Below are positions 5,734 to 11,938 of a stretch of 42,790 nt of DNA, piece by piece. Location: contig PKXK01000116.1 of assembly GCA_003132325.1 (NCBI GenBank), positions 35,552-78,341 on the forward strand. Reading direction: 5' to 3'. Origin of the DNA: Acidobacteriaceae bacterium. GTDB taxonomy: Bacteria; Acidobacteriota; Terriglobia; Terriglobales; Acidobacteriaceae. Within the stretch, counting starts at the first letter, position 1, and every line of letters starts with the position of its first letter. A model generated the notes under the pieces. It worked only from the letters and a program-made list of their open reading frames with translations, did not search any database and had not been told where the DNA came from. Both the position numbers and the translations under genes were made by a program.

Positions 5734-6897
5734 ATGAAGGCAGATACAAGTTTCATGAGCGAGCTGTTTCGTATCGTTAATGGCGCTCTTCGTCTCGATA
5801 TAGACAAAGTGCGCAACTATACGGCATTCCTCGCGGACAAACTGGAAAAGGCTGGTGATGTGTCATCGGCCGGCCGCCTGCGCAAAATGCTGGAAGAGAG
5901 CGATCAGCAGTTGCGGCCTGCCGGTGCTGCGTTCGCGAGAGCTCTTCCCGTCGATGAAGATAGCAGGTTTCCGCTGATCGAACAGGTCAACCTCAAGAGC
6001 GTGTCCGAGGCGCCCGTCGTCCTCGGCCAGGATCAATGGGATACCGTCAACGAATTCTTGAGCATCGCGAAGAGTTACGCGCTGGCCGATACCGACGTCC
6101 TGTCCACATCCTTGAGCTTGCTGATGTACGGTCCTCCGGGAACCGGGAAGAGCCGTCTTGCGCGGCACATCGCCAAGGAACTCGGTCTCGATCTCTACGT
6201 TGCGCGCTTGGACGGCCTGATCTCGTCGTTCCTTGGAAGCACCTCGAAGAACATCCGTGCGCTTTTCGATTTCGCGGCCAAGACGCCTTGCGTGTTATTC
6301 CTCGACGAGTTCGACGCCATCGCGAAGCTGCGCGGCGATAGCCAGGAACTCGGCGAGCTGAAGCGGGTCGTGAACAGCTTCATCCAGAACCTCGACACGC
6401 TGGGCAGTCACTCGATCGTGATTGCGGCAACGAACCACCGGGAGTTGCTGGACTCCGCCGTGTGGCGGCGCTTCAGCTACCGCCTCGCGCTCGATTTCCC
6501 GTCGGCTGAGTTACGCGAGAAAATGTGGACCACCTTCAGCGGCACGATGGAGTTCACGGAGCGGGAGATCGCTCTACTGGTCGATCTGTCCGAAGGGTTT
6601 ACTGGTTCGGACATTCGCGAGGTCTACGTGCGGCTCCGGCGCCGCCAGTTGACGAAGCATGAGCACCCCGGTCTGAAGGACGCTTTCCAGGTTCTTCAGA
6701 ACATGGGCATCGGCGAGGGCGAAGACCGCCGCTTCCTGTCGCTCTTGCGCAGCAAGGATGTTCCGGGCATCGCGGCTTCGCTGCGCGAGCGAAACGCGAA
6801 GCTGTACAGTCACGCCGCGCTCGCCGATCTGCTGGGCGTTTCAAAAGCAACTGCTCATCGATGGGCCGCGGGAACGGAGATAGAGACCAATGGCTGA
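5734..6897 (+). CDS. ietA-like: AAA+ ATPase, IetA-like, with C-terminal HTH-like segment
   Basis: Walker A GPPGTGKSRLAR, Walker B VLFLDEFDAIAK, sensor IVIAATNHRELLD; C-terminus LADLLGVSKATAHRWAAG; 8-nt overlap with downstream subtilase gene. Confidence 0.85.
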   Translation: MKADTSFMSELFRIVNGALRLDIDKVRNYTAFLADKLEKAGDVSSAGRLRKMLEESDQQLRPAGAAFARALPVDEDSRFPLIEQVNLKSVSEAPVVLGQDQWDTVNEFLSIAKSYALADTDVLSTSLSLLMYGPPGTGKSRLARHIAKELGLDLYVARLDGLISSFLGSTSKNIRALFDFAAKTPCVLFLDEFDAIAKLRGDSQELGELKRVVNSFIQNLDTLGSHSIVIAATNHRELLDSAVWRRFSYRLALDFPSAELREKMWTTFSGTMEFTEREIALLVDLSEGFTGSDIREVYVRLRRRQLTKHEHPGLKDAFQVLQNMGIGEGEDRRFLSLLRSKDVPGIAASLRERNAKLYSHAALADLLGVSKATAHRWAAGTEIETNG

Positions 6898-9232
6898 TAC
6901 ACCCAGACCACCACGGCAAGAACGCCTTCTGATCAAGGTGATCATGCCCAAGCAATACGTCGAGAGGAAGGTGCCCGGAGGCGGAACGCCGCCGAAGCCA
7001 TTCCGGCCCGTAGATCAGAAGTACCGCGCGTCCTTGTCGAGCCAGGTTTCGGCGATCCGCGCGGCGATCATTCCGCAAATCAAGACCGCCGGCGCTGCGC
7101 CTGTCCGGGTGAAGCTGGTCTCACAGGCTGCGGCAAAGAGCCACCGGCCTGAGAACCTCTTCTCTGCACAGTCTTGCCCCATCGTCAGCGGTGGAGGGCT
7201 CGGCGAATTGTTTGTCAAGGCGACGCCCGAGGGGCTGGACCGCCTGACATCGCTTATCGAGCACAACACTTCGGATCGGATGACGAAAGAGCTGTCTTGC
7301 GTCGAGACGATCGAGCCGGTCACGCCGTCGTACCGCCGCAGCGGGCTTGACGCAGCGGACCTGCTTCGCCACAGTCCGCGCGGAAAGAACGGCTTCATCA
7401 CGCGCGTCGGGCTCTTCAACTTCGGCGCGGATCGGGATCAACCGAACCTCGTTGCGGACCTGCGGGCTACCTGCAAGCGGCGCGACATCGCCCTGAACAC
7501 GAAAGGTTATTCGCCTTCGAGCTACACATATGAAGCCGAGTGCAGGACCGTGGAAGATGTTGAGGCGCTGTCCCGCGTGGTCGGCGTGCGTTCGATTGCG
7601 CCTATGCCGCTCATCCGTACCATCCGGCCCCGCATGTTCGCCGCGCAGGCGCTGCCGTCCCTGCCGACACCTGCAGACGTGACCGGGGACTTCCCGGTGG
7701 TCGTCGTGGTGGATAGCGGCATCGAGAGCAGCATTCCTGGTCTTGAGGCTTGGGTCGCGGGCCGCAACTCGGAGGTTGCGCCCGCCTACCGCAACACCGA
7801 CCACGGCACCTTTGTCGCCGGGCTGATCTGTTGGGGTAGCCAGCTCAATCCCACCATCAAGGGCCTTGATGACGGTCCTTGCGGGGTCTATGACCTGCAG
7901 GTCATCCCTAATGACGATCCCGCCAAAGGCAAGACGCTGCCGTTGTTCGAATCCGAGTTCCTTCAGACGCTTGACGAGGCGCTGAAGCAACACGCCAATA
8001 AATACAAAGTCTGGAACCTCTCGCTTGGCACAAGCGCGGTCTGCTCGCTTGACAAGTTTTCAGAGCTCGCCGAAGAACTCGACAATCTTCAGGAGAAGTA
8101 CCAAGTTTCCTTCGTCATTAGCGCGGGCAACTACGACACGCCGCCGCTGCTGGATTATCCGCGCACCGGCAAGCAGTTGAACGCCGGGCGCATTACCGCT
8201 CCGGCCGACAGCGTCCTTGGCATTACGGTCGGCGCGGTGTCTCACGTCGACTACAAAGCCAAAGGCCCGAAGACGGATCAGCCGTCAGCCTTCTCGCGGC
8301 ACGGCTCTGGACCGAACTACGTTATCAAGCCCGACCTCGTTCATTACGGCGGCGCTTGCGCCACGGACGCCTCGCATATCTCCGGCATCCGCTCGGTCAA
8401 CGGAAACGGCTCGGCCGAAAATCTCGGCACGAGCTTCGCGACGCCCCTGGTGGCGCGGACGCTGGCCCAGATCTATCACCAGGTGACGCCCACGCCGTCA
8501 CCCGTGCTTGCGCGGGCGCTGCTCACGCACCACGCGCGCGATCCCCGGACGTCGCAACGAGTGCCCGATGGCGAAGAAAATTTCTTCGGCTTCGGCATGC
8601 CTGAGCCGGTGCCTTACTGCCTCGAATGCACGCCTTACACGTCGACCCTCGTCTTCGACGACGTGCTGCGGCCCGGCTACTTCCTCGAATGGAACGACTT
8701 TCCTTATCCGCCGTCGCTCAAGCGGGACGGCAAGTATTACGGCGAGGTCTGGATGACGGTGGCGTTCGCGCCCGCTCGCGGCGCGCGCTGGGGAACGGAG
8801 TATTGCGAAACGCATATAGACGCTCACTTCGGCGTCTACCGCAAGGAGAAGTCGCGGGAAACGGGTCTCGTCAAGCCGAAGCTGAAGTTCGTCGGCTTGG
8901 TTCCCCCAGAACATAAGAACGCGGGCGAACTTTACGAGTCCTACCAGGTCGAGAAGCTCCGCAAGTGGGCTCCCGTGCGGACCTATTACGGCAACATGGA
9001 AAACGGGGAACGCGGCGAGCGCTGGCGCATGATGCTTCGCCTGCTGACCCGGCATGGCATCGATGAGGACCAGGACGCTTTCAAGCCTCAACCCTTCTCG
9101 CTGATCGTGACGATCTCCGATCCGCAGAAGAAGGTGCGCGTCTACGACGAAATGGCGCAGCTTGTCCGCAACCGCTTCCAGTCGCAGAACCTCACGGTTC
9201 GTGCGGCGGCGCGGGTTAAGGCGCGCACATGA
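6890..9232 (+). CDS. ietS-like: S8 family serine peptidase (subtilase), IetS-like
   Basis: catalytic motifs VVVVDSGIE (Asp), DHGTFVAGLI (His), GTSFATPLVA (Ser); paired with AAA+ ATPase. Confidence 0.9.
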   Translation: MADTPRPPRQERLLIKVIMPKQYVERKVPGGGTPPKPFRPVDQKYRASLSSQVSAIRAAIIPQIKTAGAAPVRVKLVSQAAAKSHRPENLFSAQSCPIVSGGGLGELFVKATPEGLDRLTSLIEHNTSDRMTKELSCVETIEPVTPSYRRSGLDAADLLRHSPRGKNGFITRVGLFNFGADRDQPNLVADLRATCKRRDIALNTKGYSPSSYTYEAECRTVEDVEALSRVVGVRSIAPMPLIRTIRPRMFAAQALPSLPTPADVTGDFPVVVVVDSGIESSIPGLEAWVAGRNSEVAPAYRNTDHGTFVAGLICWGSQLNPTIKGLDDGPCGVYDLQVIPNDDPAKGKTLPLFESEFLQTLDEALKQHANKYKVWNLSLGTSAVCSLDKFSELAEELDNLQEKYQVSFVISAGNYDTPPLLDYPRTGKQLNAGRITAPADSVLGITVGAVSHVDYKAKGPKTDQPSAFSRHGSGPNYVIKPDLVHYGGACATDASHISGIRSVNGNGSAENLGTSFATPLVARTLAQIYHQVTPTPSPVLARALLTHHARDPRTSQRVPDGEENFFGFGMPEPVPYCLECTPYTSTLVFDDVLRPGYFLEWNDFPYPPSLKRDGKYYGEVWMTVAFAPARGARWGTEYCETHIDAHFGVYRKEKSRETGLVKPKLKFVGLVPPEHKNAGELYESYQVEKLRKWAPVRTYYGNMENGERGERWRMMLRLLTRHGIDEDQDAFKPQPFSLIVTISDPQKKVRVYDEMAQLVRNRFQSQNLTVRAAARVKART

Positions 9233-9265
9233 ATTCATTTCAGAACAGAGGGGAGGTGAAAAACG

Positions 9266-11201: not shown

Positions 11202-11638
11202 AACAGCCCGTCATTTTCAAGCATGAATTCGTCCAGTTCATCCCCGAGGAGCTTCAGGAGGGGACGATCTATGTCTCGATCCGCTTCGCCACGGTCGCGC
11301 ACCTTTGCGCCTGTGGCTGCAAGACCAAGGTCGTTACCCCTTTGAAGCCGACGGACTGGCAGCTCACCTTCGATGGCAAGACGGTGTCGCTCCATCCCTC
11401 GGTCGGCAACTGGGCCTTTCCATGCCGGTCCCATTACTGGATCAGGAATGACAAGGTGCAATGGGCGGACGATTGGTCTGATGCGCGGATCGAAGCCAAC
11501 CGCGAGTATGATCGCCGCGCGAAAGACAGGTATTTCAGCGAGGTCGAGGGAGACGCCGGGCTCGTGACCACCGGCGAGCCCGTCACAGCGCAGCCGGTGA
11601 CGAAGCCCGCCTGGTGGAGAAAGCTGTGGCCGTGGTGA
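11198..11638 (+). CDS. DUF6527-like putative metal-binding protein
   Basis: CACGCKTKVVTPLKPTDWQL...VSLHPSVGNWAFPCRSHYWI motif set; ATGA overlap with ThiF gene. Confidence 0.8.
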   Translation: MKQPVIFKHEFVQFIPEELQEGTIYVSIRFATVAHLCACGCKTKVVTPLKPTDWQLTFDGKTVSLHPSVGNWAFPCRSHYWIRNDKVQWADDWSDARIEANREYDRRAKDRYFSEVEGDAGLVTTGEPVTAQPVTKPAWWRKLWPW

Positions 11639-11713
11639 CGGCCGCCCGCTAGCAGCATTGCATGAAATGCCGGTGGCGTGGAGACAGGCGTCCGACGTAA
11701 AATAGGCAACGTT

Positions 11714-11938
11714 ATGGCGGAACAGCCCAAAACCGACGATGTCGAGAAGTTTCTCGCAGAGCAAAAGGCCTTCGACGACCGCAAACAGGGTCTCATCGAC
11801 GATCTTCTGCGCCAGAAGGCCGAAGCCGTGAAGGCCTTTGACGAGAGGCTGGCGAAGCTCGGTTATCGCGCGAGCGGCAGGCCGAAAAGAAATCACCACA
11901 AGCAGGCCGAGCCTGCGAAGCCGAAGCCGAAGGCTTAA
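11714..11938 (+). CDS. small highly charged protein
   Basis: ORF MAEQPKTDDVEKFLAEQKAFDDRKQGLIDDLLRQKAEAVKAFDERLAKLGYRASGRPKRNHHKQ, end of the co-directional cluster. Confidence 0.6.
   Translation: MAEQPKTDDVEKFLAEQKAFDDRKQGLIDDLLRQKAEAVKAFDERLAKLGYRASGRPKRNHHKQAEPAKPKPKA

What the first reader, a model, noticed from the sequence alone, without database searches (positions are those of the whole stretch)
5734..11938. Candidate composite system: IetAS-like AAA+ ATPase/subtilase joined to a multiubiquitin-E1-DUF6527 module
Seen: co-directional genes AAA+ ATPase, S8 protease, 63-aa protein, two-repeat multiubiquitin, ThiF/E1-like with extra N-terminal domain, DUF6527-like and a small charged protein. 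Overlaps are 8 nt (ATPase/subtilase), 26 nt (multiUb/E1) and ATGA (E1/DUF6527). Known: IetAS is a reported anti-phage ATPase/subtilase pair, and bacterial Ub-like/E1 operons such as BilABCD are reported anti-phage conjugation systems. Inference: both halves act as one pathway, with Ub-like modification marking or activating a substrate for an ATPase-gated protease, a functional analogue of ubiquitin-directed proteolysis without a proteasome. I cannot tell from sequence whether this pairing has already been described.
Basis: partly seen in the sequence, partly recalled or inferred. Interest (0 to 1): 0.93.

Follow-up and report, generated by a model that had tools for sequence, protein, structure and literature searches.

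The report
ATPase-protease module driving ubiquitin-like conjugation genes
A soil Acidobacteriota genome carries a mobile six-gene cassette in which a known anti-phage ATPase-protease pair and its own conserved promoter have been joined to bacterial ubiquitin-like conjugation genes, in the position where sister operons keep a peptidase thought to sense damage, so a protein-tagging pathway and a protease can now be tested as one unit.

Summary
Six co-directional genes (IetA AAA+, IetS subtilase, a 63-aa YjzC-like protein, multi-ubiquitin, DUF6791-ThiF E1, DUF6527) form one cassette, window ~5698-11540. Near relatives share exactly this block, in unrelated flanks. The IetS-to-Ub gap is 33-40 nt in relatives lacking the 63-aa gene. 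The Ub half is Bub-like: it has the multiUb, ThiF, DUF6527 order and its E1 best matches Citrobacter BubCD. It lacks the JAB and E2 domains of canonical Bub. The pairing is not general: 0 of 12 other IetS loci sampled in the phylum have an E1 nearby. Yet on an E1 tree IetAS appears upstream at three separate, supported places, with breakpoints at the IetS|Ub junction. In sister operons that slot mostly holds an ImmA/IrrE (CapP-like) peptidase. New here: 24 IetAS relatives share a leaderless promoter with a CGTCTC direct repeat, unique in the genome, and IetA ends in a conserved HTH. I infer that IetAS is a self-regulated protease module that controls the Ub-like genes and probably acts with them. 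Ub-directed proteolysis remains possible but unshown. The small charged protein does not belong.

The parts
5698..11540 (+). whole mobile cassette: promoter to near the end of DUF6527
   Evidence: Only block shared with L024 (88% nt), L039 (91%) and L040 (85%); flanks unrelated
5699..5733 (+). leaderless promoter/operator: -35 TTGACA 5699-5704, CGTCTC 5707-5712, -10 CATTAT 5722-5727, CGTCTC 5728-5733 abutting ATG
   Evidence: shared by 24 relatives; the strict pattern hits 16 places in 2.1 Mb of loci, all directly before an IetA start; one site in the 5.3-Mb genome
5734..6897 (+). IetA, AAA+ ATPase
   Evidence: PADLOC PDLC02196 E=1.3e-121; Pfam AAA; Walker A GPPGTGKS
6787..6867 (+). conserved C-terminal helix-turn-helix-like motif of IetA (LYSHAALADLLGVSKATAHRWA)
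   Evidence: Conserved in all 19 sequences compared and seen by eye in most other IetA proteins; Pfam HTH hits only sub-threshold (E=0.012)
6890..9232 (+). IetS, S8 subtilase, with DSGI, HGT and GTSFA catalytic motifs
   Evidence: PADLOC PDLC02200 1395 bits over residues 5-779; Pfam S8 1.2e-28
9266..9457 (+). 63-aa YjzC-like small protein (GLYQQIGPRGGK); optional part
   Evidence: Pfam YjzC sub-threshold E=0.007; between IetS and multiUb in L024, L039, L040, L042, L047, L056; related protein after unpaired IetS in L027, L028, L029
9554..10015 (+). multi-ubiquitin-like protein, C-terminus VTPTDKS
   Evidence: Multi_ubiq 1e-17; PDB 9cd2 E=1.4e-10, same TDKS end; TDKS invariant in the 22-sequence alignment
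9990..11201 (+). E1-like: DUF6791 (residues 11-163) + ThiF (175-304)
   Evidence: best fold match Citrobacter BubCD, E=1.7e-12
11198..11638 (+). DUF6527 protein, invariant H35 C37 C39 C41 C76 H79, probable metal site
   Evidence: Pfam 7.7e-27; alignment; no PDB fold match

Best explanation
This is one mobile operon made of two separable modules. The 5' module is IetAS with its own promoter. The 3' module is a reduced Bub-like conjugation core: multiUb, DUF6791-ThiF E1, DUF6527. Most likely working: in uninfected cells IetA, through its C-terminal HTH, binds the CGTCTC direct repeat that brackets the -10 element and keeps the operon low. A trigger (phage infection or DNA damage) engages the IetA ATPase and IetS protease, lifts repression, and raises IetAS and the conjugation core together. 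The E1 then activates the multiUb C-terminus, and tagging of proteins plus IetS proteolysis act in the same response. IetAS thus sits where sister operons keep a CapP-like peptidase. Shown: the cassette, gene spacing, module swapping, shared promoter-operator, conserved HTH-like motif and purifying selection. Inferred: that IetA binds the operator, what the trigger is, that conjugation occurs, and how the two activities interact.
For: Block boundaries match the operon in relatives with unrelated flanks. IetA/IetS overlap 8 nt or abut; IetS to multiUb 33-40 nt with a ribosome-binding site. One sigma-70-like promoter in 5500-12100, at 5699, before IetA. Operator TTGACA-n-CGTCTC-...-CGTCTC-ATG before IetA in 24 relatives of several phyla, paired or not; one site in the genome. 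IetA C-terminal HTH-like motif. Of 51 distinct metagenome E1 operons with a scored 5' slot, 34 have an M78 peptidase there and 13 IetS; one of the four others, L080, is also M78 by Pfam. IetS occurs at three separate supported places on the E1 tree, two of them inside M78 clades. Breakpoints lie at the IetS|multiUb junction (L058/L051, L090/L097, L090/L108, L075/L099, L044/L041). CapH+CapP or CapW sit beside 219 of 544 Bub operons (PMC13373217).
Against: IetA binding to the repeat is inferred from co-conservation only; Pfam HTH scores are below cut-off. The operator also stands before IetAS that has no Ub genes, so it argues for autoregulation of IetAS, not for a function with the Ub core. No experiment shows defence by either half here. 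The association is rare outside this IetS clade. A weak or non-standard internal promoter would be missed by the scan; one match is no more than the shuffles give, and it is the conservation that makes it credible.
Confidence: 0.45

Rival explanations
1. Ub-directed proteolysis without a proteasome: the multiUb tag, attached by the E1 module, delivers target proteins to the IetA unfoldase and IetS protease.
For: Co-expression in one cassette; the IetA AAA domain resembles CDC48 and proteasomal ATPases; 47 of 51 scored sister operons have a peptidase next to the Ub core; the JAB and E2 domains of canonical Bub are missing here.
Against: IetAS of the same family exists without any Ub genes (L036, L118 and others), so it does not need the tag. 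M78 peptidases in the same slot resemble the known regulator CapP, not degraders. No Ub-binding feature was found in IetA or IetS.
Confidence: 0.2
2. Two independent defence modules that share a promoter and travel together; no direct interplay.
For: The modules are separable and each exists alone. IetAS also sits beside Shedu, Bil, 6A-MBL and a TIR-like gene, as in ordinary defence islands.
Against: Pairing appears at three places on the E1 tree in the same order, strand and close spacing and persists while partner lineages change (L090).
Confidence: 0.27
3. IetS processes or deconjugates multiUb, replacing the JAB peptidase that canonical Bub carries.
For: Canonical Bub E1 carries a Prok-JAB domain; here DUF6791 stands in its place and no JAB is found.
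Against: Sister DUF6791 operons have no IetS, and no JAB is annotated in most of them; the multiUb C-terminus TDKS is invariant with no extension to remove.
Confidence: 0.08

Closest known systems
IetAS anti-phage system (PADLOC IetA/IetS; NCBIfam IteA/IteS)
   Same: AAA+ ATPase and S8 protease genes, overlapping, same order; IetS profile PDLC02200 matched over the full length
   Different: Joined to a Ub-like conjugation core and, in some copies, a YjzC-like gene; scores below the NCBIfam equivalog cut-offs (374/510 and 505/900 bits), so a distinct subfamily
Bub (bacterial ubiquitination-like) operons, Citrobacter type
   Same: multiUb, ThiF E1 and DUF6527 genes in that order (L211); E1 fold best matches Citrobacter BubCD
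   Different: No E2 family E domain on multiUb and no JAB on the E1; DUF6791 instead; IetAS instead of CapK/CapS, CapW or CapH/CapP in the 5' slot
multiUb-DUF6791/ThiF-DUF6527 operons with XRE + ImmA/IrrE (CapH/CapP-like), e.g. Croceicoccus and Pacificitalea plasmids
   Same: Same three-gene core; 26-nt multiUb/E1 overlap
   Different: 5' partner is a predicted regulator pair, divergent in these plasmids, not IetAS
BilABCD
   Same: Ub-like protein plus E1 conjugation operon; one Cupriavidus plasmid has BilC-BilD followed by IetA and IetS
   Different: Bil has a separate JAB gene (BilC) and a different E1 family (BilD); no Bil profile matches the window proteins
6A-MBL anti-phage system
   Same: E1-type conjugation gene next to IetAS on Hymenobacter plasmids
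   Different: MBL-fold enzyme and Cap2/Cap3-type E1-E2-JAB; shares only the ThiF domain with the window core

Membership tests
IetAS | IetA-family AAA+ ATPase with Walker A | tested here: met
   PDLC02196 E=1.3e-121; GPPGTGKS in the translation
IetAS | IetS-family subtilase with intact catalytic motifs | tested here: met
   PDLC02200 1395 bits over residues 5-779; DSGI, HGT, GTSFA present
IetAS | NCBIfam equivalog cut-off for IteA/IteS | tested here: not met
   374 of 510 and 505 of 900 bits: same family, not the equivalog
IetAS | protects against phage | not testable with these tools
   needs plaque assays
Bub | multi-ubiquitin, ThiF E1 and DUF6527 genes in order | tested here: met
Bub | E1 related to BubCD | tested here: met
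   sequence E=1.5e-5; fold E=1.7e-12, TM 0.44, model pLDDT 72
Bub | Prok-E2 family E domain | tested here: not met
   absent at E<=0.1 in all cassette proteins; present in Citrobacter; DUF6791 does not match it by profile
Bub | JAB peptidase domain fused to E1 | tested here: not met
   absent; present in the Citrobacter E1; DUF6791 does not match it by profile
Bub | covalent conjugation of the Ub-like protein | not testable with these tools
   biochemistry needed
Bil | BilD-type E1 and BilC JAB | tested here: not met
   no PADLOC Bil hit for the window proteins, whereas Cupriavidus hits at 4e-152 and 8.5e-64
CapH/CapP-type control module | XRE repressor + ImmA/IrrE peptidase | tested here: not met
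   IetAS instead; shares only the 5' slot, a DNA-binding-like motif and a protease

The most novel reading that the evidence does not exclude
A bacterial Ub-like tag made by a Bub-like core lacking recognisable E2 and JAB domains is read by an HTH-bearing AAA+ unfoldase and a subtilase in the same operon, giving tag-directed proteolysis without a proteasome, with the protease module also repressing the operon until infection.
Probability: 0.17. Interest if true: 0.92.

Novelty: new variant of a known kind. Interest (0 to 1): 0.62.

Why it matters
It links two bacterial systems so far treated apart: IetAS, whose mechanism I found no account of in the papers searched, and Bub-like conjugation, whose role in defence is unproven. 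The peptidase-slot exchange gives a natural experiment: the same conjugation core beside a CapP-like peptidase or beside IetAS. The private operator and the IetA HTH-like motif give a directly testable hypothesis for how IetAS is controlled, which may apply to many IetAS loci. If the tag and the protease interact, it would be a proteasome-free analogue of ubiquitin-directed proteolysis.

Tried and rejected
General IetAS-Ub association: rejected as a rule; 0 of 12 IetS loci in the phylum sample have ThiF nearby. IetAS beside Bil (Cupriavidus) and 6A-MBL (Hymenobacter) exists, but IetAS is beside Shedu as often, so these may be ordinary defence islands; a 43%-identical 6A-MBL in Emticicia has no S8 gene annotated beside it. 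DUF6791 as an E2 or JAB: no profile match and no PDB hit; its invariant HPC motif is only suggestive of E2. DUF6527: no PDB sequence or fold match. Two Ub repeats: halves do not match. Small charged protein: not conserved. Ye 2026 and Chambers 2024 were not held, and a guessed DOI for Gong 2025 returned nothing; what I say of Bub comes from PMC13373217, PDB titles and the plasmid records. In the papers searched only one review holds both IetAS and ubiquitin, so prior description outside the held library cannot be excluded.
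Full report
Observation. The window encodes, on the + strand, IetA (5734-6897), IetS (6890-9232), a 63-aa YjzC-like protein (9266-9457), multi-ubiquitin (9554-10015), a DUF6791-ThiF E1 (9990-11201) and DUF6527 (11198-11638). The multiUb start is better placed at 9554, after AAGGAG. The charged protein at 11678 is not conserved.

One cassette. blastn of the window against three relatives gives a single block, 5698 to about 11540, at 88% (L024, an Acidobacteria MAG), 91% (L039) and 85% (L040) identity, with unrelated flanks on both sides. 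The block starts at the promoter and ends within DUF6527. Against L039, five genes have dN 0.01-0.03 and dS 0.17-0.41, so they are under purifying selection. DUF6527 has dN 0.22 and saturated dS, so that gene was probably exchanged separately.

Two separable modules. In other pairs only the multiUb-E1-DUF6527 core is shared, and the similarity begins near the multiUb start (at most 30 nt away): L058/L051 91%, L090/L097 87%, L090/L108 83%, L075/L099 86%, L044/L041 78%. In L074/L036 only IetAS is shared. Of 51 distinct metagenome E1 operons with a scored 5' slot (the window included), 34 carry an M78 (ImmA/IrrE) peptidase there, 13 carry IetS and 4 neither; one of the four, L080, is M78 by Pfam. 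M78 was assigned by tblastn with five seeds found in these loci and checked by Pfam in three loci, one of them sub-threshold. On the E1 tree IetS lies at three separate supported places, the window clade, L090, and L025/L074/L075, the last two inside M78 clades. On the IetS tree the paired proteins group together, with one unpaired (L036) and two undetermined members. L090 is incongruent: its IetS is 84% identical to the window but its E1 is 67%. L041 has a divergently transcribed, 35%-identical IetA next to an 87%-identical core. Rough chance estimate (inference): 13 of 396 genomes of the phylum have an IetS-profile hit above 100 bits. With some 4,500 genes, the chance that IetS directly precedes a given gene on the same strand is about 4e-6, or 4e-4 with a hundredfold defence-island enrichment; three independent cases are not chance.

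Operon and operator. IetA and IetS overlap by 8 nt or abut; IetS to multiUb is 33-40 nt with a ribosome-binding site, or about 320 nt when the 63-aa gene is present. The one sigma-70-like promoter found in 5500-12100 is at 5699-5727, directly before IetA. In 24 relatives from Acidobacteriota, Pseudomonadota, Armatimonadota, Planctomycetota and Eiseniibacteriota, with or without Ub genes, IetA is preceded by TTGACA, CGTCTC, a -10 element and a second CGTCTC abutting the start codon; the repeats are 21 nt apart in all 11 measured. A few relatives, such as L027, L030 and L118, have a degenerate first repeat. The strict pattern occurs 16 times in 2.1 Mb of loci, every time before an IetA ATG, and the repeat pair occurs once in the 5.3-Mb genome. 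A viral-contig relative (L213) has a weaker form. IetA ends in a conserved HTH-like motif, which I also see in most other IetA proteins fetched. The simplest reading is autoregulation by IetA, unproven.

The Ub core. A Citrobacter plasmid Bub operon reads capK, capS, multiUb with Prok-E2, JAB-ThiF, DUF6527 (capK and capS by the protein accessions given in PMC13373217). The window core has the same three genes but no E2 family E and no JAB domain, and DUF6791 replaces JAB on the E1. The E1 model (pLDDT 72) best matches Citrobacter BubCD structures, E about 1e-12, and multiUb matches 9cd2. The multiUb C-terminus TDKS is invariant in the 22 aligned sequences. DUF6527 has a probable Cys/His metal site and no PDB match. 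EMBO J 2026 (PMC13373217) reports 219 of 544 Bub operons next to CapW or CapH+CapP and says Bub has not been shown to protect against phage.

Generality. Twelve other IetS loci of the phylum have no ThiF nearby, and ten plasmid DUF6791 operons have no IetAS. In a 297-genome sample of the phylum, 8 carry the E1 and one of those the adjacent IetS. IetAS is beside Bil in one plasmid and 6A-MBL in another, but also beside Shedu.

Interpretation. The cassette, shared promoter and slot exchange are shown. That IetAS controls the Ub core in the manner of CapH/CapP, and acts with it, is my best inference (0.45). Ub-directed proteolysis is a live rival (0.2), as is simple co-transport of two defence modules (0.27).

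Noticed in passing
window 11198-11638; L039, L024: DUF6527 is much more diverged (69-76% identity) than the other five genes (93-97%) between near-identical cassettes, suggesting gene exchange or fast change; it may be a specificity subunit.
   Followed up: partly
L146 (Rhizobium beringeri pRlX1) 405-9622: Two Ub-like operons back to back, multiUb + Mov34/JAB and multiUb + ThiF + DUF6527, with sigma-70, hypothetical and UvrD genes between them.
   Followed up: no
L141, L142, L148: A UvrD-like helicase module (annotated, with a hypothetical gene and sometimes sigma-70) upstream of long multiUb genes in plasmids of Leptolyngbya, Acinetobacter and Klebsiella; the Acinetobacter multiUb has three Multi_ubiq matches.
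   Followed up: no
L152 (Hymenobacter plasmid) 3847-10905: IetA, IetS, 6A-MBL enzyme and 6A-MBL Cap2/3 in one direction, 96 nt between IetS and the MBL gene.
   Followed up: partly
L157 (Cupriavidus plasmid) 170-6032: BilC, BilD, a 238-aa protein, IetA and a shortened IetS in one direction.
   Followed up: partly
L150-L156, L188, L189, L197-L199: IetA proteins of other subfamilies also end in an HTH-like motif, so DNA binding may be general for IetA.
   Followed up: partly
L197 8571-9584: A gene with the sequence FISYSWDNDEHRDW (TIR-like) lies about 40 nt downstream of an IetS.
   Followed up: no
L051 7381-7674; L116 9265-9549: A DUF3892 small protein sits directly before multiUb in operons without IetAS.
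   Followed up: no
window 14047-15027 (-); L034; L118: A tyrosine-recombinase-like gene lies near the cassette or near IetAS in three unrelated contexts.
   Followed up: no
window 17071-34503: Two FAD-binding monooxygenase genes with HlyD, ABC and outer-membrane efflux genes in opposite orientations.
   Followed up: no
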